A stretch of DNA of 64,000 nt from Xylona heveae TC161 (lineage: Eukaryota > Ascomycota > Xylonomycetes > Xylonales > Xylonaceae), in NCBI RefSeq assembly GCF_001619985.1, contig NW_017264197.1, positions 1,674,001-1,738,000 of the forward strand, written 5' to 3'. Numbering within the stretch: the stretch's first letter is position 1; each line of letters starts with the position of its first letter. Shown here in pieces: positions 1,832 to 22,111 of this stretch. Made by a program: the position numbers and the translations under genes. The notes beneath the pieces are model-generated. The model was not told the origin of the DNA and did not search any database. It worked only from the letters and a program-made list of their open reading frames with translations.

Positions 1832-4292
1832 GTCCTTCTATACTGAAATGGGAAAATCAAAGAAATATGTGCGATACGGCATACGTAGGCGGCGTGGACA
1901 GATCGTGCATACAGGATAGAGGTCAAACTATAGGGGAGACAATGGTTCGAACACTAGGTGCCTCGATCGGCGCTTTTGAGATGTGCTTTTTAAGGGCGGT
2001 CTAAATATTTAGGAGACGGAAGATTTATAGATAGAACGATCCAAAATTGAGGCCTGAAAGAAAGGCCCGAGAGAAAGACGATTAAAGCCGACGCGGACCC
2101 CGGCAGTTGGACGATGCCAGGAACGAGCAAGCTACTAGTTAGCTCTAGACTCGCGACGAAGACGATCGGTGCGAATGATTTAGAGCTTGGCGAGTGGCGG
2201 TGTTGAAGAGGCAGCAGGGAACGAGGGAAGTCGGGAAAGCCCGATGAATCAACGTCGAACACGCTCAAAGTGCTCCATGCTCAGGATGCTGGCGTCGTCA
2301 GGCAGATCCACGTCTGCAAAAAGGAGCAATTTGGGGGAGCGGACGGGGTTGTGGTTTCAGATGTGCGGGAGAGGGAAAAAAGGAAAAAGAAAAAGGGAAA
2401 AAAAAAATTAATTAGAGATACAACTGCGGTTGGGCCGTGGTCGGAAGAAGGAGCTCATTTTCATTTGCTTTAAGCTTATCGATTAACGGGTGACCACAAC
2501 CCATCTGGCAAAGTCGCAGTTAAAGGGGGGCGTGAAATGTCACTTGTCAGGTTGCATGTCAATTGTTTCGTGGATTCTTTTGGGTATCAAGTCTAGTATG
2601 ATCCTGTACAACCAAGAAGGCCTTGAATGAACATTTTATTCGTTCCAGCGCAGATTAATTGAATGATTGATGAAGCCATCTACGGTACATAGTGTAAAGT
2701 GATATTTTTGGTTCAGTGGATTGGGTGTTGGTTGGTGTCGATTCAGCTGGATTTGTGTCTGACGCTAGATACTAGTCTTGCTTGAGAATCATCTATATCC
2801 CTGCGACATCTTGATGCGATTTGATAATCAGCTCTCATTGTTCACTGTCTCAGCTTCCTCAGACCTCTTCGTCTTGCCGCTCCGGCTCGACCCTGAGAAC
2901 CGCCTGTGATGGATGGTCCGCTTTTGAAAAAAAAAAAAAAAAAAAAAAAAAAAAACACGATCTTGTTTAGATCAGGTCGGTCACAGTGAGCTTGGTCATG
3001 TACAGCTTTGTTGCTCGTCACGTGGTGCCGTCTTTGATTCCTTAAAGGAGATGAAAATATTGATGACGATTAAAAAGAATTGTTCAATTAAATATTACTG
3101 TGAGAAATATAGTTAAAATGATCAGCGATAAATTATCGTAAACTTCTCTTGGTTCAAACAACACACGGCGACATTCGTATTGCCACATGTGCGACCCACG
3201 ATGGTGCTATTTATTTCATACACGAGGCACGATGGTGGATAAGAGTTACACAGCAAGTTGTGATTTTGTGTATTTTATGCATTTGGCTAATTTTGTGCTT
3301 AATAATTTGGAGAACCGTGGCCGTCGCCATTGCCCTTTTGCATGCATCTTGTCGATCTGTCAGAGAAATTGCCTCAAATTTTGTCATACCAAATGATAAT
3401 AATAATAATATTAATGATAACGATATCAATAATAATAATAATTCTTGTAATTATCATATTGTAGTAATACTTATGATGCGAATTGAAAACTTGCGCACGC
3501 TTACCGGCACTTGCGGGTCTCAGACAATATTCCTGGAAATTACCTACTGCGTGGGGGGAAGCAGAGAACGTGTTCCTGTGTCAAATACCGCACATAAGGC
3601 TGATGCTCTTAGGAAATGTCCTGACAAGATGCTGACTGGTTGATCGTGGGGGAGGTCCCACTCACCGCATTGTCTTGTTTGTACTTTGTAATCCCGCAAA
3701 ACACCATTTCTTTTGCTGTGGGGTTGTTTTCAAGGGCCCCCCAATTTAGATTAACTGTGGGGTGGGAAAGTTGGGGAACGTGGAGCCCTTTTCTCATGGA
3801 CCACTGAAACTAGGGAGGTCTATGACGAGCATTTGATTGTGTCTCAAATAAAAAAAAATTATACCGCAGATAGATAAGAAGATGCAATCCTTCACTCACA
3901 AAACAACATGGATGTTGGTATCACAAATTCAACTGCCGAAAAGCCTGCTTTTGAAGACCCTGTACCCGGCAAAGGAAAGCGACGGGTGGTCGGGTCGGTT
4001 CAGGGATGAAATGGGAATGGGTGAGCCATCATCACGTGGTTGATATGAGTGTGAGAGTCCATGTGGGGCAGCCCCAAACTCCCACCTTATTCTCCATTGC
4101 GATTCTAACTGGCTCCCTGGGTCCCTTAAACTGCCTTGTCTTTCAATTGAATAGACCAACAGATCTTCTTGATGTTCTCCCATTGCCGTTCCTTCCCTTC
4201 CTTCTGCTAGTTGTCTATCGTGTCGATTCAACTCATCTCTCGATGGGCTCTGTCATGGCCGCTTTTTGACATTCGCTAGCAAGAGAGACCCG
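1832..4292. other. Intergenic, AT-rich, no convincing gene
   Basis: About 2.5 kb between the divergent GTPase and regulator genes. It holds an uninterrupted A tract (2927-2955), an AAT-rich patch near 3398-3450 and only short open frames without ATG starts or family resemblance. It presumably contains the promoters of both flanking genes. Just upstream of the regulator there is a CGG-rich patch near 3985-4005. Confidence 0.6.
2927..2955 (+). repeat. Homopolymer A tract (A29)
   Basis: Twenty-nine consecutive A residues in intergenic DNA. No target-site duplication or element body was recognised next to it, so it is scored as a simple repeat. Confidence 0.9.
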
Positions 4293-6186
4293 ATGGCGGG
4301 AAGCACTAATCGTGCCTGTGATGCCTGCGCCGTGAGGAAGGTCAAGTGCGATGGAAATCAACCGTGTCGTCGCTGTGTCCAAAACTCCTTTCGATGCACC
4401 TTCCTCAAGACTCGCGCAAAGTCCGGCCCAAAGGGTCCACGGGCCGCGACCACCAACATTATTCTGAGGAGACAGAGTGACTATAGCAAACGGAGGGATG
4501 GGTCCAGGCCGGCTGCAGGCTCCCAGCATGCCTCAACCTCCGAGACCCCAGGGCAGCCACCCGAGGACGTTCCTCGTGCGAGTCTCGAGACCGGTGAAGG
4601 TTTCTTTGTCTGGCAAAATCAGTCCCAGCAACCACACTTGCCACCGCGCGTTGGTCCTACCGTGCCCATCTTTCGCCAGCGAGTACCTATGCCTATCGTG
4701 ACATCGTACCTCCAAATGTACCAGGCTCGCATGTACCCTACGTGGCCCGTTGTCAATTACAAAATACTACTGGAGCGCCTTCATGAGAACGAGAATGACT
4801 TGGAAGCCTATGCATTGGCGCTGGCCGCCTGTGCAGCCACCCGGGCTCGACTGAAGCTTTCCGACGGCGAGAATGACCAGTCCAGTCCGTTTACAATGGA
4901 ATATATGGCGGAAGAAGCCAGACACACACGCTCGAGCATGTGCTACGAAGAGCACCTAACCATAGATGTACTTTTAACTTCCTTCTTTCTTCATGTGTAC
5001 GCCGCCGATGTAGGCAAGCTGCGAAGTTCCACCTTGCTCCTCCAGGAAGCCATTACCTTTGCTCATTTGATTGGCCTCCACAAGGAGACTTACTATACGC
5101 CTTTGAGCGTCCCAGAGCAACAGAGCGCCCTTCGAGTGTATTGGCTGCTCTTCGTAACGGATAGGTATTTCGCCTTCTCCATCGAACAAGGAAAACAGTT
5201 CACGTGACTAATGGGCATTCCAGAGCGCATTGCATCCAATACGATCTTCCAAATATTCTCAAGAGAAACCGCAGCTTACCGGCATTGTTTTTCGAAGAGG
5301 AAGCGTTGCGCTCGTCTGCATTTCCCCGGTTATGCAATTTATTTAGCATTTTTGATGATGTTGCCAGCTGCGACAGCTCCCAGCAGACCCGGGAAGCTTT
5401 TGCACGAGTTCAAGATCTTCTGCAAGGCGTGCCAGAGCTACCAAATCACAGCAGCGAAATCCAGCGGGCCGATATTGGCATTACGCAGCAATGGATGAGA
5501 GTGCTTGTGTGGCAGCTTTCGCTGTCACATGTTATGCTCTCAACCGACTCGACCATGCAATCTCTTTCGCTTTCATTCCCCGCCCACATTGCCAAGAGCG
5601 CTGTCGCATTTATGAGCAGCCTGTCGCCAGAAGCATTGGAAGCTCATGGGATTGGCATGGTATGAACCTTTTTCTTTTACGCCTTCCTACCGTCGCGTGG
5701 AACCCGCTTACCTAACCTTTTATCCAGGAAATGAAATTATTCGAGATTGCAAATGCGTTGGCAGATGTGATCCTTTGCGTACCCTCAAATGCAAGCACCA
5801 TCCCTCTCGAATCAGGCGCTGGAGAGAGCCTCCTGAAACTTTTTGGGACTCTGGGATCTTTCCGGGGAGGAAATTCTGCCCTACTTCCGATACTCCAAAG
5901 CAAGGCACTTAAGATGGGTATGGCATTGCCCTCACCTGGTCGCGTACTGGGTTCCCCAGAAGAGATTTCCACCAACTCTTCCTCTCGACATTCCCCCGTC
6001 ACTAGCGTCAGCGATACCAGTCGCCAGCCTCCCAGCGAGGCGAGTTCTATGGCCAAACACCCATACCAAACGGCACCATTTCCCTCGCTTGGGACGCATC
6101 CAATGATACCCTTTGGTGGTCGCCACGACGAATCCGACTCGCCACCGGATCAATCATCCGTGGTAATCTGGAACAGTTCTTATTGA
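4293..6186 (+). CDS. Zn2Cys6 transcription factor of the MAL-like sugar locus
   Basis: Binuclear zinc cluster regulator with a fungal-specific TF middle domain. Exons are 4293..5164, 5224..5659 and 5728..6186, giving 630 codons plus stop (588 aa) from the first in-frame ATG. The zinc cluster is C9-x2-C12-x6-C19-x5-C25-x2-C28-x6-C35, followed by a basic linker with KTRAKSGPKGPR. The middle domain (about 120-420) contains YWLLFVTDRAHCIQYDLP; that motif is only restored when the first intron is spliced at AG|GTATTT, which has an ACTAAT branch site. The C-terminus is Ser/Pro rich. Its position next to an alpha-glucosidase and a sugar permease parallels malR of Aspergillus oryzae and MAL63 of yeast, so control of those two genes is inferred. 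It is tail-to-tail with the glucosidase. Confidence 0.85.
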
Positions 6187-6835
6187 AGTTACTACTTCGC
6201 ATTCCATATTCCATTGACCTTTAATTTCCCGTTATCCTCATGCACCAACCAGCATAGTGCCGGCGATCTCGAGACTGAGGTGAAGAACGTGCTATGTGCG
6301 ATTCTCGAATCGGTTCTTATGGTTGATCCCGTTCCACATCAGACTTCGATTGGCAGCCTTTTCAAAGGCCCTTTCTCTATATCTATTGAAGGCGTAGCGC
6401 CATCTCCAGGCCGCTCGGGTCGCACAGGACATCTCGCACACGTGAATAAATCCGTGACGAATGAGAGAGGGCAGGCCATCCTGAGATTTGGCCTGCTACA
6501 TAGATCCCTGCTGAAGTGAGATGCATTGAGGCTTGCAAAGCTCAATAATTTGATACAGTCCAGTGCTGCTCTACAATCTTTAGATCATACTGGCGTTGAC
6601 CTTGAAAAAAGGTCAGTATCCCGAATCTTCCATTTCCTGACCTGCAACAGGTTTCTTTCTTCTCAGCATGAAAACAAACTATGATCGTTTCTCATATGTT
6701 TTCCCTTTTCTGCGAAATTCATTCCATGTAACGACACATCGATGTTTTGCATTCTGTTTCAATATTTTTGTACGATGATATCCGATACATAGCCATCTAT
6801 AACCTTGGCGCCAACTATAGCCTTTATAAATCAAA
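6187..6835. other. Convergent intergenic region
   Basis: The 3' flanks of the regulator (+) and the alpha-glucosidase (-). A frame at 6214-6519 begins without an ATG and shows no family features. Nothing else is seen apart from presumed 3' UTRs. Confidence 0.6.
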
Positions 6836-9002
<2,167 letters not shown>

Positions 9003-9118
9003 TTATGAAGGTGAAAAAGTTGAGAATTCTCTTTCTCTTTGCTGCAGGCTGCCACTCTGACACGAGGCGACAGCTACAACACGATTTCTGCCCACTATCT
9101 CGTGCAAGCTCGGCCGGG

Positions 9119-9125
9119 TTATATA
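9119..9125 (-). promoter_or_regulatory. TATA-like element of the alpha-glucosidase gene
   Basis: TATATAA read on the minus strand, about 150 bp upstream of the alpha-glucosidase ATG, a plausible distance for a fungal TATA element. It is inferred from position and sequence only. Confidence 0.4.
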
Positions 9126-9338
9126 CAAGTCCATCGTTTCCTTTTCGCGATCTATAGCTGTCGCGTCAAGACAGATACCGGTATTTTTTTCTTGGGACAC
9201 TGAACGTCTGATCAAATTCATCCTGCCCCATTTGTCAAACCAGTCTCCAGTTTCCCCACATTTTCTCCTCATACCAATTCCAAACAAAAGTCCGTCTACC
9301 TCGGCCTACGTTTTCTTCCAAAAGAGACACAATTCTTT

Positions 9339-9353
9339 CCGAGAATCTCCCCG
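9339..9353 (-). promoter_or_regulatory. CGG-N9-CGG site 1 (putative regulator binding site)
   Basis: Minus-strand reading CGGGGAGATTCTCGG. It shares CGG-NNN-G-N-TT-N-T-CGG with the two sites that follow. CGG direct repeats with fixed spacing are the standard targets of Zn2Cys6 dimers. Confidence 0.55.
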
Positions 9354-9362
9354 AATATTGAT

Positions 9363-9377
9363 CCGATAATCATCCCG
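9363..9377 (-). promoter_or_regulatory. CGG-N9-CGG site 2 (putative regulator binding site)
   Basis: Minus-strand reading CGGGATGATTATCGG. It starts 24 bp from site 1 and matches the same spacer pattern. Confidence 0.6.
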
Positions 9378-9403
9378 GGTTACTTTTCCAAGGCAATTTT
9401 GAT

Positions 9404-9418
9404 CCGATAAACAATCCG
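9404..9418 (-). promoter_or_regulatory. CGG-N9-CGG site 3 (putative regulator binding site)
   Basis: Minus-strand reading CGGATTGTTTATCGG. It starts 41 bp from site 2, again with spacer positions G, TT and final T conserved. Confidence 0.6.
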
Positions 9419-9756
9419 ACATTTCCAACGAAAATCTTACCGAGTTCCACGTGGAAAAGAAAAGCTTGTGGACAAAGTACCGAGAGTGATGATGATGATT
9501 CTGCATCGTGCCCAGCCTCGAACTGCTTCTCGGCAGTCGCGAACCGTTCTCGAAGTATGTCTTGCATCAAGGGTTATGATATCTCGGGAACCTGACTAAC
9601 GGCCCTGGACGGCTAGCCCTAAACTCTTTGGCGTACCGAACCAACACCCGTCTCCCCAAGTTATGTCAACTTGGCCAGACGAGGGCTCGAACTAGAGGGT
9701 TGGCCCAAGAGGAAACCCCCCCGCATTCCCCATGGCTACCTCTTCAGCTCCTGGAT

Positions 9757-9819
9757 CTGGGGCACCCAATTCAAGTCGTGTGGGGATTACCCTTTTCAGC
9801 AACGTGTGGCCACCCCCAG
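9757..9819. promoter_or_regulatory. Cluster of CreA-type (SYGGRG) sites
   Basis: Three matches to the carbon-catabolite repressor consensus lie within 63 bp: CTGGGG at 9757-9762, GTGGGG at 9780-9785, and CCCCAG (minus-strand CTGGGG) at 9814-9819. Clustered CreA sites in a sugar-gene promoter suggest glucose repression. The six-base consensus is degenerate, so this is only suggestive. Confidence 0.35.
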
Positions 9820-10079
9820 TGCCGGTTGAGGTTTGGTAGGTTCTAGCCCGCGGACCACCCATGCGGGCGAAGCCACCGCTCGGATATGTCAGTCCATTGG
9901 ACATTGGATCATCACGAGATGCAGCTTTTTGCACCTCATCAAATCCGAGCAAAACTCACAGATCGACTAGCCAAGCTCATAGCTTGGGACGGAAATCAAT
10001 CCAGCGGAAAAGTATACGGGCTTCTCTGGATTGGCATGGCTTCCTGCTTCTTTCTTGTCTTTGCGGTTTTATTTGCGTC

Positions 10080-10086
10080 TATAAAG
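10080..10086 (+). promoter_or_regulatory. TATA-like element of the sugar transporter gene
   Basis: TATAAAG about 190 bp upstream of the transporter ATG at 10278. Its place argues against using the upstream in-frame ATG at 9861 as the translation start. Confidence 0.4.
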
Positions 10087-10277
10087 ACCGCAGGCATTTC
10101 GCGGTAGTTTTTGTCGATTTCTCTCTGGATTGTGGTCAAGACACAATTTTGCTCTTATATCGAGCTGCATCTTCCGTCTGTTACCTGTTTGACGATTTAC
10201 ACTTCTTCATACAATCTCCTTCACGGCTTCTTTTCGTTCCCGGCTCTCTTCAATATACATTACCTCTCGTCGACATC

Positions 10278-12115
10278 ATGGGTGGGCCTGCAGGAGTTGT
10301 CTGCAGCTCTGGTGGTGCTGTCTACAAGACGCTTCGCAATAATACGCACAAGAACTGGATAAGAGATCCAGGGCTTCGGCATCTCAATATCGGCGTGGCG
10401 ATGATGTTTGCGTCTGCCGCTGCCAATGGCTATGACGGAAGTTTGATGAATGGACTTTTGGCCATGAAGAGATGTAAGACCCCTCTTCTACGTTTTCTTC
10501 TTCTGAAAGATTTTCCGGTTTTTTCATTGCTAACATTCTATAGTCACTGATGATCTTGGACATGGTTATGATGACAAGAACATCTTGGGACTGATCATTG
10601 CTGGAATCAGTCTCGGAGGTCTGCCCAGTTTTATCCCTGCTTCCTACGTGAGTGACTGGCTTGGAAGACGAGGCACTGTTGCCATTGGATCTTCAATCAT
10701 GGTGGCTGCAGCACTCATTCAGGCATTCACCCATGGCCCATGGGCGTTCCTAGGCACCAAAATCATGCTTGGTGTCGGATTGGGGTTCTCTCAGACTGCG
10801 GCACCACCTCTGACTACCGAAATCGCGCATCCCCGTCAGCGCGGTCAAGTCACTGCCCTCTTCCAAGCCGTCTGGTTCTGGGGCTCCATTCTCTCAGCCG
10901 TCATTACTCTTGGTTGCCTCTTTGTCAACAACAACTGGGCCTGGAGAGCGCCTTGTCTCATGCAAGGATTCTTCCCTGGTATACAGTTGTTGGGTCTTCT
11001 CATCATCCCCGAATCCCCACGTTGGCTCGTCTCCAAGGACCGTGGAGATGAAGCTTTCAACATTCTCGCCAAATACCATGCCAATGGCGATCGAGATGAT
11101 GAACTTGTACAGTATGAGTTTCAAGAAATTTGCGAGGTCATTGAAAAGGAGAAAGAGGCAGCTCGGAATTCGGGCTTCATGTCTTTTTTCGAAAGCAAGG
11201 GCAATATTCACCGATTTGCAATTTGTGTGCTCGTTGGCGTCATGATCCAATGGGCAGGAAACGGTATGGTATCCAAGATCTGCAACAAGAATAATGAAGT
11301 CGCGTACTGATCATTCTTTTTCTGCTTAATAGGTATCGTCTCATACTACCTTACCCCCATCCTCAGGAGCGTCGGCATCGAGGATGCCGTCTCTCAGTCT
11401 GCTATCAACCTCGGTATGCAGATATGGAATGCCATACTGGCTGCATGCGGTGCCATGGCCGCTGAACGCTTCGGTCGTCGTCCGCTCTGGCTTCTGTCCA
11501 CCGTCGGCATGCTGATTTCCTTTACCATCATCACTGCTCTCTCCGCCGTCTTCGCCGAACACGGCGTCAAAGCCGCTGGTAGTGCCGTGGTTGCGTTCCT
11601 CTTTGTCTTCTTCGGCTTCTACGTCATTGCTTATACACCTCTATCTATCGCCTACCCCGTCGAGGTCCTGCCCTTCCGTCTGCGTGCCAAGGGTCTTTCC
11701 ATCAACTTGACTGTCGTTTTCGGAACTGGTTTCTTCAACCGTGAGTTTTTCCACTCTTACACCCTTCCACTTTCACCATCTTTTCCTTGAACCCAATGAT
11801 GAGAATAATTTGCAACCGGCTTCTAACAACCTTTTGCCAAAAACAGAATACGTCAACCCGATTGCCCTCAACGCCATCCAATGGAAATTCTACTTTGTCT
11901 ACATCGGTTGTCTCGTCGCCATGCTTTTCATAATTTACTTTCTCTTTCCCGAAACAAAGGGACGCACGCTTGAAGAGATTGCTACTGTCTTTGATGGTCC
12001 CGCCGCTGAGACCGATGTCGCTCGAAATCTCTCCGTCGCAGTGGCCGCCGACCAGGCCGAAAAGGCTGTACATATGGGCAAGATGGAACATGTCGAAATC
12101 AAGCACCTGCCTTGA
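10278..12115 (+). CDS. MFS sugar transporter (sugar porter family, lactose/disaccharide-permease-like)
   Basis: Twelve-helix plasma-membrane sugar:proton symporter of the sugar porter family. Exons are 10278..10473, 10544..11263, 11333..11740 and 11847..12115, giving 530 aa. Signatures are GYDGSLMNG in TM1, the loop motif DWLGRRG (D-x3-GRR), PESPRWLVSK after TM6, ERFGRRP in the second half and the terminal PETKGRTLEE. The sequence resembles the LAC12 / fungal lactose-cellodextrin permease clade more than the MAL61-type alpha-glucoside permeases, judging from the TM1 and TM7 regions (IQWAGNGIVSYYL). Substrate is therefore uncertain. Its divergent pairing with the alpha-glucosidase implies uptake of that enzyme's disaccharide substrate. 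The start was chosen by family length and the TATA element upstream. Confidence 0.88.
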
Positions 12116-13053: not shown

Positions 13054-15081
13054 ATGAAGAGAGCGGCCAGACTTAAGCATTACGCGCTCAGCAAATATCG
13101 ACCGTGCATATTGTCTACAAGACGTCGTCATCATAATGCTTTATTATACAGCCCTACTTCAGGAGTGTATTTGAGACAGGAGTCTCCTTCAGCTCACAAT
13201 TATCATTTGCAAACACGCCTAATGAGTTCGGCGGGTGTCGAGCATCGATTCGCAGAACTATTTCATTATACCAGTGGTCGCTGGCTCTGGGACGAAGAAA
13301 AGCAAAAGGGCGATCGATTCGCTGCTTTTAATGTACCGGAACTTCAAAGAGTTGCTGCAAAGAGCATTGGAGCAAACGAATGTATTGCAATCACGAAACT
13401 AGCCGAGGGATCCTTCAACAAGACTTTCAAACTCCGGATGAATAACGGAACAAATGTCATTGCGAGAATTCCCCACCCAATTGCAGGTCCGCAGTACTAC
13501 ACTACGGCATCCGAAGTCGCAACGATGGATTTTGTAAGGATTCTCACGGGACTCAGAGTCTACATCAAGTCTGTTTCTAATCCATGTACAGGCCCGCAGT
13601 GTGCTAGAAATCCCAACTCCGAAAGTGTATGCGTGGAATGCGGATAAAAACAATCCCGTTGGCTCTGAATACATAATTATGGAAGAAGCCCGTGGCACAC
13701 AATTAGACGATATATGGAACGACCTTTCTCTGGAAGAAAGGATAGTGATTATGAAAGACCTTGTATCGATAGAGAAGAAAATGCTTTCCGTATCGTTCAA
13801 TAGGTTTGACATCGCGGTGAACTTGGGTCGTATCTCCTAGCACTAATCAGCACCTAGATACGGAAGCCTGTACTACGCCACCCAAAATATACCAGGCGCT
13901 GCAATGGCAGAAGTGGTGAGCGATGTGCCAGAAGAAGTCAAAAACACTGTGATGCGTCGCTTTGCAATCGGCCCTGTTGTAGAGAGAGATTATTGGAACA
14001 ACGAACGGGCTACGATGGATATTGACCGCGGGCCGTGTATGATTTCTCTCCCTTCTCATCACGCCATGTAGTTCCCCGTTAACTCTTCGAAGGGAAATGT
14101 GCTCAAGACTACGTCACCTCGCCAGCTCGTCGAGAGCTGCAATGGATTAAGCATTATGCGGTTCCCAAAACCCCGGACGATCCATTGATAACTTCTGTGA
14201 CACAAAATTCCCCCGATAGCCACCTTTCGCTGCTTCAGAAGTACCTAGAGGCTGCCCCATTTCTCCTCCCGGATGATCCTGCTATTGTTGCGCCTCATAT
14301 ATGGCATACGGACCTCCATTCAGCAAATATCTTTGTGGACCAGGGACATATCTGCAGTGTGATCGATTGGCAAGGAACGTGGGCAGCACCGTTGATACTT
14401 TGTGCGCGCCACGCCCGGCTGGTTGATTATCAAGGGGAGATTATCTTAAAGGCTCCCGCCAACTTCAACGATCTTGAACCGGATGAGAAAAATAAAATAA
14501 GGAGACAGATGAGCAGCTCGATAATTCTTTACCTCTACGAGAAGCAAATCGCAAAGGAAGCGCCCCTGCTGAACAAAGCTCTTCGCTTTAGTCATGGTCG
14601 AACAAGATGCGATCCTATCCATTTTGTTGGCGACACGTGGGATGATGATATATTTCCTTTACGAGAATCCTTGATCCGAGTAGAGAGGTAAGTTCAGCAT
14701 GCCATCTGAAGGCCATTCTGGGAACCTGAGTTGAGAGTGAAAGGTTACATCTCGCTGTCAAAGTGTTTGTGGCTAATTTTGCTCAGGTATTGGGACGAAT
14801 TGGGATTTGACTTTCCATGTCCTATACACTTTACAGAGGATGAGGTTTGCGCTCATGCGAAAGACGGTGAAGGTTGGAATGACGTTCAAGATTTCTGGAG
14901 TTCCGTTGCAGGTATTGTTTCGAGGGACGGATGGACTCCTAATCATCTTTACAATGATGCTGTTGCTCTTTTTCAAGAGTTGAGAGAGATCGGTCTAAAG
15001 TCCTTGGTGGACAAGGAGAGAGTGGAGTTTAAAAATCAGACTGAGTGGATTGAAACGCATTCTCGGGATCACAGAGTTTGA
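13054..15081 (+). CDS. AIM9-like aminoglycoside-phosphotransferase-fold protein (paralogue 1)
   Basis: Protein kinase-like/APH-fold family related to yeast AIM9 (altered inheritance of mitochondria 9), whose biochemical substrate is not established. Exons are 13054..13533, 13592..13803, 13858..14036, 14093..14687 and 14787..15081, giving 586 aa. The first 50 residues are Arg/Ser/His rich with almost no acidic residues, compatible with a mitochondrial presequence. Family landmarks are FHYTSGRWLW, FNVPELQRVAAKSIG, KLAEGSFNKTF, ARIPHPIAGP, EVATMDF, DLHSANIFVDQG and VIDWQGTWAAP. The catalytic-loop motif HTDLHSAN (His362, Asp364, Asn369) and the metal-binding IDWQ are intact, so it may be an active phosphotransferase. 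It lies beside an old yellow enzyme and is paralogous to the gene at 20241-22111. Confidence 0.85.
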
Positions 15082-20240: not shown

Positions 20241-22111
20241 TTACATGTACTCTTCCTCATCAAAGTCGTCAAAAATCCAATTCTCCTCTAATCTCAACTT
20301 TTCCTCACCAGACTCAGCAAGTTCAATGAACATATTTTTCAGCTTTTGTTCCCGTTGCTTCACCTCGTCATAGATGTCGGGCGGTACCCATCCTTCGGGA
20401 CCAATGCCGCCAATAGCGTCACAGCAAGACTGGAGGTGCTCATCCGCTTCAGTCTTTGCGGCATCCAGCCGCAAACATTCGCTGATTTCTTCCTCTGAAT
20501 ATGCTATTGGGCAAGGAAGCATTGCATCACCCGTCTTACTTGGTGCTGAATTGACAAATCTCGACCAGCTCTTAGCCACATGAACCAGATCCGCTTTGAG
20601 AGTCACATTATCGCCCTCCCAGGGCTCACTCGCGTGGTGGAAAGCCTTGCGTCTCAGTATGCTCAAATCAGCTGACAACGCATTGTAATGAAGTGGATTT
20701 ATTTTCGAAGTCAGCGCAAAGTAGAAGTAATGTAGCTGGCGCCTTCGTAAAAGCTCGAGTTGTTCGAGTCGCTCTTTTTCTTCTAATTCGTTGAAATTGT
20801 CAGGTAAAACAGGGAATTTCAGGGACTCTGAGACGTCGTCCCCGTAATTCTGGATGCTATTTGGAATTCCACATTGTAGAAACAATGGGAGCACTGTGCA
20901 GCCTTGCCAATCAATTAAGCCGGTGATCTCAAGCTCATCAGAGACAAATATGTTGCTCGGTTGAAGATCAGGGTGCCGTATAGTTGGACGTGTGAGAGCG
21001 GGTTCATTCTCTGGTACGAGATAAGGCGCAACTTGAAGATATTTGTTCAAATTTGCTATATGCTCGAGATGCGATTGTGGCTGGTAATTGTATATCTCTC
21101 TACGGAGACGCTGGAAAGGCTGAAGCGGCCGCCCGAATTTTTCCAAGTAAGCAATTTCCTTTTTGGCACCGGCTGTAATTGCTGCCGTACAATCTCTATC
21201 TTTTGAATATTAATTGATATATTTCCTTTACATGACAAGGTTATTGGAAATTAGATACTCACATGGTCCTCGATTAACTGAAAGATTTAGTCTCTTACCA
21301 TACCATAACCCAGGCGTAAGATCAGGCCCAATACAGAAACTGTCCTTTCCAGATGAATGGGTGCTAAGAACAATAGGTTTATCGACTTCAGGTTGTAGAT
21401 CGTCCGTATAATATAGACTTCCACTTGCAGGAAACCCTATATCGAAAAGTCGGGCCTCCAACTCAACAATTTCAGTTATTATTTTGATCCTGTCGCTTTC
21501 AGACAAATCAAACCAAATATCACTCAAATTTGTCCCACGAACGAGCTCCATGAAGATGTACTCTGTGCCCGCAGTGTTTGTGGACACAGGGGAATAGCCG
21601 TAGACCTTCGGTACGGGTATCCCGTTGTTGCGAAGAAAATCCATTGTCGCTACTTCGCTCGCCACGAGCAGATGTTTGGGCTCAGTGACTGGATATGGAA
21701 TGCGAGCAACAAATTGAAAGCCATCCCGCATGGAGATGCGAAATGTCCGATTGAACCCACCTTCTGCAAGTTTCTCGAACCCAGCGACATCTTCTTCTTT
21801 CTGGCCGATTGATGCAGCTGCAAGGCGCTTCAGTTCAGGAACATTAAAGACACGCTTTCTTTCAGATTGTCTCAGTTCATTATTGAAGCTATTGCAATAA
21901 ATCAGCGGTGTTAGTCTTTTTTACAGGCGTTAAAAAAGGTGACAAACATCCATCGCCCAGACGTATATGCGAATAATTCAGGGAATTCCTGTACTCTCTG
22001 GCGCAAAAATGAGCGACATGTAAAATTCTTTCTTAAAGGCAATCTGAGTGTTGGAAATGAAGAACATAGGAAGTTGATAGGCAGGCGCCTTAGATGGTTA
22101 AAACATTCCAT
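20241..22111 (-). CDS. AIM9-like aminoglycoside-phosphotransferase-fold protein (paralogue 2)
   Basis: Second member of the AIM9/APH-fold family. The model is complement(20241..21199, 21263..21888, 21948..22111), 582 aa. It aligns by eye with paralogue 1 through FAYTSGRW, FNVPELKRLAAASIG, KLAEGGFNRTF, ARIPYPVTEP, EVATMDF, YIFMELVRGTNLSDIW and the catalytic loop HPDLQPSNIFVSD (His339, Asp341, Asn346), then LIDWQG. The N-terminus (MECFNHLRRLPINFLCSS) is basic and hydrophobic with no acidic residue after Glu2, compatible with mitochondrial import. The acceptor of the last intron is uncertain. The AAAAG site used restores the length expected between NRGP and KKEIAYLEKFGRP but gives Tyr where paralogue 1 has Trp; acceptors 15 and 24 nt further in would also keep the frame. 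The C-terminus is very acidic. Confidence 0.83.

What the first reader, a model, noticed from the sequence alone, without database searches (positions are those of the whole stretch)
9339..9418. Triple CGG-N9-CGG operator in a divergent sugar-gene promoter, next to its likely regulator
Three 15-bp direct repeats lie within 80 bp between the alpha-glucosidase and transporter genes. On the minus strand all read CGG-NNN-G-N-TT-N-T-CGG, so the nine-base spacer is conserved at four positions as well as the CGG ends. That goes beyond chance CGG pairs and beyond the N8 spacing of the amylase regulator AmyR. The linked Zn2Cys6 gene at 4293-6186 is the obvious candidate reader. The layout recalls the yeast MAL61-MAL62 divergent promoter with its several MAL63 sites, but here the regulator family, spacing and transporter type differ. 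The link between regulator and sites is inferred.
Basis: partly seen in the sequence, partly recalled or inferred. Interest (0 to 1): 0.75.

Follow-up and report, generated by a model that had tools for sequence, protein, structure and literature searches.

The report
Fungal MAL-type sugar-gene control array
A short stretch of DNA between two divergent fungal sugar genes carries a row of evenly spaced CGG marks that looks like the landing site of the neighbouring regulator, a relative of the well-studied yeast maltose activator, so it is probably a new example of a known type of switch rather than a new one.

Summary
The repeats are real and beyond chance (0 of 5000 shuffles). There are four CGG-N9-CGG sites at 9339-9418, not three: four CGGs stand exactly 12 bp apart (9339-9377), plus a pair at 9404-9418. 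Two more sites (9636, 10005) lie nearer the transporter.

The genome is Xylona heveae TC161. The linked regulator is a homologue of Saccharomyces MAL activators. CGG(9N)CGG with an AT-rich spacer is the published site of one of them, the palatinose/isomaltose regulator Yfl052w (PMC4172970). The enzyme has the Val-Ile signature of isomaltases.

A second isomaltase-type gene lacks such sites in the stretch fetched.

Not shown: binding, inducer, conservation in other fungi. Verdict: new member of a known kind. The 12-bp phasing and the Ser/Ala at the specificity position of relatives are worth testing.

The parts
9339..9377 (-). Phased array: four CGGs at exact 12-bp steps = three overlapping CGG-N9-CGG sites (9339, 9351, 9363)
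   Evidence: placement test
9404..9418 (-). Fourth CGG-N9-CGG site (CGGATTGTTTATCGG)
9428..9442 (-). Degenerate continuation of the 9404 row: CGG-N9-CGT, in 12-bp register with 9404/9416 (weak evidence)
9354..9377 (+). First copy of a 24-nt imperfect direct repeat containing site 9363
9395..9418 (+). Second copy of the 24-nt repeat (83%), containing site 9404
9636..9650 (-). Isolated CGG-N9-CGG (CGGGTGTTGGTTCGG)
10005..10019 (+). Isolated CGG-N9-CGG with AT-rich spacer (CGGAAAAGTATACGG), about 60 bp before the TATAAA on the transporter side
4293..6186 (+). Zn2Cys6 regulator, MAL-activator homologue; exons 4293-5164, 5224-5659, 5728-6186 in my reading; the deposited model P0001 has 33 further residues at the N terminus and the same C-terminal end
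6836..8969 (-). GH13 alpha-glucosidase, 598 aa, six exons, isomaltase-type motif [11 protein letters not shown]
10278..12115 (+). Sugar porter (PF00083), 530 aa, four exons, identical to deposited P0158
9120..9125 (.). TATATA on the glucosidase side (consensus match only)
10080..10085 (+). TATAAA on the transporter side (consensus match only)

Best explanation
The array is a shared upstream activating sequence of a three-gene MAL-type cluster (regulator, isomaltase-type alpha-glucosidase, sugar porter) in Xylona heveae. The linked MAL-activator homologue binds the CGG-N9-CGG direct repeats, probably as a head-to-tail dimer; overlapping 12-bp half-sites raise occupancy or offer several binding registers. 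With an alpha-glucoside present (isomaltose, palatinose, sucrose or maltose) it turns on both divergent genes. Shown here: the sites, their non-random clustering, the gene content, the regulator's homology and the enzyme's signature. Inferred: binding, dimer register, inducer and activation.
For: Clustering beyond shuffles and 12-bp steps beyond random placement (20 of 200,000; any distance 4-39, 116 of 50,000). Regulator homologous to MAL activators (26% over 469 positions, E 1e-39). MAL activators read triplets nine bases apart, and Yfl052w reads CGG(9N)CGG with an AT-rich spacer; deleting the sites abolished induction (PMC4172970). Three of four spacers here are 7-8 of 9 A/T. Cluster layout as in yeast MAL and A. 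oryzae malR-malT-malP (PMC8180590). Enzyme with Val-Ile after the catalytic Asp, as in isomaltases. CGG-N9-CGG in the intergenic region: 6 against about 0.65 from the window's density. The residue that makes yeast Malx3 promiscuous (Arg12) is Ala here.
Against: No binding or expression data. Another isomaltase-type GH13 gene (C6) has no CGG-N9-CGG in the stretch fetched upstream. None in 3300-4292 upstream of the regulator. The older MAL consensus MGCN9MGS is not enriched here: 3 matches, none in the array, while the window holds 221 (about 4.5 per 1308 bp by its density); CGCN9CGN 1 against about 2.1. The 15-mer is not enriched genome-wide. A second MAL-activator-like gene exists on C4. What Ala at position 12 does is untested. 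Conservation in other fungi could not be tested.
Confidence: 0.7

Rival explanations
1. The array is a real operator but is read mainly by another Zn2Cys6 protein, for example the MAL-activator-like paralogue on contig C4 or an AmyR-type regulator.
For: A paralogue with a similar zinc cluster (GRACDACASRKIRC...GPKGPW) lies on C4, and a further distant relative on C2. CGG half-sites are common to many Zn2Cys6 proteins (general knowledge).
Against: Linkage of the array to this regulator gene. AmyR's CGGN8(C/A)GG occurs once, outside the array. I found no zinc-cluster motif for the C2 relative in the stretches held, so its class is unknown.
Confidence: 0.15
2. The phased CGGs are chance plus a small local duplication, without regulatory role.
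For: The 15-mer is no commoner than its reversed control (62 against 70); three phased CGGs are less common than theirs (466 against 735). Two of the sites sit in a 24-nt duplication. Groups of three CGG-N9-CGG within 80 bp occur elsewhere: one in the transporter's last exon (12000-12059), and in 2 of the 37 other loci scanned, 126,427 bases with overlaps. The tested stretch was picked after it was seen.
Against: Shuffles and placements. TRF finds no tandem repeat in 9000-10280, and the spacers differ. The duplication accounts for at most one of the four sites. Position in a divergent sugar-gene promoter beside a MAL-activator homologue.
Confidence: 0.08
3. The array is an operator of the linked regulator but serves only the nearer glucosidase gene; the transporter is driven by its own sites (9636, 10005) or by another factor.
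For: The array is about 370-450 bp from the glucosidase ATG and about 860-940 bp from the transporter ATG. A separate site with AT-rich spacer stands at 10005, shortly before a TATAAA at 10080.
Against: Yeast MAL promoters are divergent and carry shared activator sites (PMC6142294, passage); one site may still act with the array.
Confidence: 0.07

Closest known systems
Saccharomyces Yfl052w and its CGG(9N)CGG sites at palatinose/isomaltose genes (PMC4172970; passages and sections 7 and 9 read)
   Same: MAL-activator family; CGG triplets nine bases apart with AT-rich spacer; isomaltase-type target gene
   Different: Yeast palatinose genes carry one site, here four clustered and overlapping; position 12 is Cys in yeast, Ala here; binding not shown here
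Saccharomyces MAL63/Malx3 with the divergent MALx1-MALx2 promoter (PMC6142294, PMC5997316; passages)
   Same: Regulator homology; N9 spacing; divergent transporter/alpha-glucosidase pair; several sites; cluster with regulator
   Different: Malx3 sites are CGC(9N)CGN or MGCN9MGS, here CGG; Arg12 there, Ala here; enzyme there a maltase
Aspergillus oryzae malR-malT-malP cluster (PMC8180590; passages)
   Same: Filamentous-fungal cluster of MAL-activator homologue, alpha-glucosidase and sugar transporter
   Different: malT is called a maltase; MalR's binding sequence was reported unknown in 2021; no sequence of that cluster was compared here
AmyR and CGGN8(C/A)GG (PMC8180590; passages)
   Same: Zn2Cys6 activator of alpha-glucan genes with CGG half-sites
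   Different: Spacing N8, not N9; one such match in the region, outside the array

Membership tests
MAL activator (MalR) family | N-terminal Zn2Cys6 cluster and fungal transcription factor middle domain | tested here: met
   PF00172 and PF04082 above gathering scores
MAL activator (MalR) family | Sequence homology to Saccharomyces MAL activators beyond the zinc cluster | tested here: met
   26% over 469 positions, E 1e-39 against P0121; yeast proteins align up to query residue 451-527
MAL activator (MalR) family | Gene clustered with alpha-glucosidase and sugar transporter | tested here: met
MAL activator (MalR) family | Target sites of two triplets nine bases apart, CGG(9N)CGG type | tested here: met
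   six in the intergenic region; presence of sites, not binding
MAL activator (MalR) family | MGCN9MGS or CGC(9N)CGN sites (Malx3 type) enriched in the promoter | tested here: not met
   3 and 1 matches, none in the array, not above the window's density
MAL activator (MalR) family | Binding to the sites and activation by an alpha-glucoside | not testable with these tools
   needs experiment
Isomaltase-type GH13 alpha-glucosidase | Val-Ile at positions equivalent to 216-217 of yeast IMA1 (residue after the catalytic Asp) | tested here: met
   [11 protein letters not shown], aligned at this motif with an oligo-1,6-glucosidase; criterion from PMC6070925 and PMC5074314 (passages)
Isomaltase-type GH13 alpha-glucosidase | Hydrolysis of isomaltose or palatinose rather than maltose | not testable with these tools
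   needs enzyme assay
AmyR operator | CGGN8(C/A)GG in the array | tested here: not met
   one match in 1308 bp, at 9934, outside the array

The most novel reading that the evidence does not exclude
Reading of CGG(9N)CGG by MAL activators is the old, widespread state in filamentous ascomycetes. None of the 95 query-like relatives whose zinc cluster could be read has the Arg12 that makes yeast Malx3 promiscuous; 86 have Ser and 8 Ala there, small residues as is the Cys12 of the CGG-specific yeast paralogue. If so, that paralogue returned to an older specificity instead of inventing one. And the overlapping 12-bp row would be an operator on which several activator dimers line up head to tail.
Probability: 0.25. 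Interest if true: 0.55.

Novelty: new member of a known kind. Interest (0 to 1): 0.4.

Why it matters
A 2021 review says the binding sequence of the filamentous-fungal MAL activator MalR is not known (PMC8180590, passage). This locus offers a concrete candidate, CGG-N9-CGG, beside a MAL-activator homologue and an isomaltase-type gene in a lineage far from yeast. It also gives an outgroup view of the published yeast model, in which a promiscuous Arg12 regulator gave rise to a CGG-specific Cys12 copy (PMC4172970).

Tried and rejected
A tighter form, CGGNNTGWTTATCGG with up to one mismatch, gave 47 against 29 in the control, so some excess remains that I did not follow up beyond the exact matches. 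Of its five exact matches two are here; the other three were fetched and lie in or beside open frames (frames not curated), so I read them as chance.

Sites at paralogous genes: no CGG-N9-CGG in the stretches fetched upstream of the GH13 genes on C5 and C6 or at the C2 regulator relative; one isolated match in the stretch at the C4 regulator. The start of the C2 gene was not located, so that stretch may not be pure promoter. No CGCN9CGN in the C5 stretch and one in the C6 stretch.

A fourth exon for the regulator (6253-6519), modelled, was dropped: 0 of 160 alignments to the proteins then held reach past residue 585, and the deposited protein ends at 6186. The 669-aa model with that exon was the query.

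Comparison across fungi could not be done. Scans of genome contigs and viral contigs with one homologue (P0003) found no relative; a second genome-contig scan was allowed and not used. The cap for metagenome contigs is 0 by the tool's description and I did not try it. No structure prediction was run.

Full report
What was checked. The window is C5:1674001-1738000 of a genome of 24,276,669 bases in 17 contigs. Regulator and transporter match deposited Xylona heveae TC161 proteins at 100% (P0001, 87% of my query covered; P0158), so I take the source to be X. heveae.

The observation. CGG-N9-CGG occurs 32 times in the window (mean of 100 shuffles 18.2, 1 of 100 reaching 32). Four of these lie on the minus strand within 9339-9418, starting at 9339, 9351, 9363 and 9404. 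The first three overlap, so that four CGGs stand exactly 12 bp apart. In the intergenic region (8970-10277, 1308 bp) there are five on the minus and one on the plus strand; no other spacing from 0 to 21 has more than two on a strand except N21 with three, which follows from the 12-bp rows. Of 5000 dinucleotide shuffles 0 reached five on one strand, 0 had four within 80 bp at N9, and 1 had four within 80 bp at some spacing from 4 to 30. Seven CGGs placed at random between 9339 and 9442 gave four 12-bp steps in 20 of 200,000 trials, and four steps of some one distance from 4 to 39 in 116 of 50,000; the stretch was chosen after it was seen. TRF reports no tandem repeat in 9000-10280.

How strong is the spacer rule. 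Sites 9363 and 9404 lie in a 24-nt repeat, 83% identical, 41 bp apart. The 15-mer occurs 62 times in the genome and the reversed pattern 70. Three phased CGGs with any spacer occur 466 times, reversed 735 (only the first places listed). With A/T-rich cores there are 5, reversed 6; two of the five are the overlapping frames of this array. In the window one other group of three sites within 80 bp exists, in the transporter's last exon; among 37 other loci scanned two have one (126,427 bases, overlaps included; 12 loci overlapping the cluster were left out). So the clustering in non-coding DNA is unusual; the 15-mer as a genome-wide motif is not.

The genes. The regulator (4293-6186, three exons in my reading; the deposited model has 33 more residues at the start) has PF00172 and PF04082. 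It aligns with Saccharomyces MAL activators over the zinc cluster and middle domain (26% over 469 positions, E 1e-39; with a recalled Mal63). One search scored 7999 candidates and found 158 relatives, 120 listed; some are named 'sucrose utilization protein SUC1' and a few 'transcription activator amyR', depositor names that test nothing. The glucosidase (8969-6836, minus, 598 aa, six exons) is GH13; its best PDB matches are BaAG2 (7p01) and oligo-1,6-glucosidases, and yeast isomaltase (3a47) also matches. Its [12 protein letters not shown] motif gives the Val-Ile pair that PMC6070925 reports for isomaltases of A. niger (AgdC), F. oxysporum (Foagl1) and a Bacillus enzyme (passages); PMC5074314 places the deciding residue right after the catalytic Asp (passages). 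The porter is PF00083; several relatives are named hexose or general substrate transporters, and I did not compare it with MAL61. TATATA at 9120, TATAAA at 10080, six CreA-like SYGGRG and five CCAAT matches are consensus hits only.

Link to known systems. Yeast MAL activators bind triplets nine bases apart: MGCN9MGS (PMC5997316, passages); CGC(9N)CGN for Malx3 and CGG(9N)CGG with an AT-rich spacer for the palatinose regulator Yfl052w (PMC4172970, outline, passages and sections 7 and 9; also PMC6142294, passages). In that work deleting the sites abolished induction, and adding a second CGG site let Malx3 act on a palatinose gene. The nearest filamentous-fungal layout that I found in print is the A. 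oryzae malR-malT-malP cluster, whose regulator's binding sequence was not known in 2021 (PMC8180590, passages). Listings show no title that reports it since; I opened none of the later papers, and the library lacks most subscription journals.

Specificity residue. In the yeast model Arg12 allows CGC and CGG, while Cys12 requires CGG. This regulator has Ala there. I could read the zinc cluster in 123 of 157 proteins held (120 listed, 37; 34 did not fit the search pattern and were dropped). Of 95 query-like ones 86 have Ser, 8 Ala, 1 Tyr, none Arg; of 28 from the yeast search 26 have Arg and 2 Cys. At position 15 the query-like set has Lys in 91, Arg in 3, Gln in 1, the yeast set Arg in 28. Many of these are close kin, so the counts are not independent, and what Ser or Ala does there is untested.

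Results against. A second isomaltase-type GH13 gene (C6, FRLDVINMISK) has no CGG-N9-CGG in the stretch fetched upstream; nor has the Thr-type GH13 gene on C5 (FRIDTMTIYGK). There is none in 3300-4292 upstream of the regulator. MGCN9MGS has 3 matches in the intergenic region, none in the array, and CGCN9CGN 1, neither above the window's density. Another MAL-activator-like gene lies on C4, with a sugar-porter-like open frame about 3 kb off, judged by eye. Conservation could not be tested.

Conclusion. The most likely reading is a MAL-type operator read by the linked MAL-activator homologue and controlling an isomaltase-type glucosidase and a sugar porter (0.7). Binding, inducer and any benefit of overlapping sites are inferences. 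It is a new member of a known kind; the phased row and the position-12 survey are the points worth following.

Noticed in passing
L017 (G000 C4:2361643-2364819) and L040 (C4:2364900-2370000): A second MAL-activator-like Zn2Cys6 gene (zinc cluster GRACDACASRKIRC...GPKGPW), with a sugar-porter-like open frame about 3 kb away, judged by eye.
   Followed up: partly
L021 (G000 C5:1787718-1789418): A GH13 gene matching in one open frame, 46% identical to the window's enzyme, with Thr at the specificity position (FRIDTMTIYGK), about 104 kb from the cluster; no CGG-N9-CGG in the stretch fetched upstream.
   Followed up: partly
L022 (G000 C6:871631-875545): A further GH13 gene with the isomaltase-type motif FRLDVINMISK but no CGG-N9-CGG in the stretch fetched upstream.
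   Followed up: partly
L045 (G000 C1:1158627-1158665): A short array of CGGAGTCATTCC-like units in direct and inverted order that also forms phased CGGs; unrelated by sequence.
   Followed up: no
window 9056-9076 and 9155-9175: A 21-nt inverted repeat, 81% complementary, flanking the TATATA on the glucosidase side.
   Followed up: no
window 6163-6519: An open frame after the regulator can be joined to it by plausible splice signals, but no homologue alignment reaches it and the deposited model stops at 6186.
   Followed up: yes
window 14185-14691 (+) and 20241-21146 (-): Two open frames with phosphotransferase-like motifs (HTDLHSANIF, HPDLQPSNIF), judged by eye; no search made.
   Followed up: no
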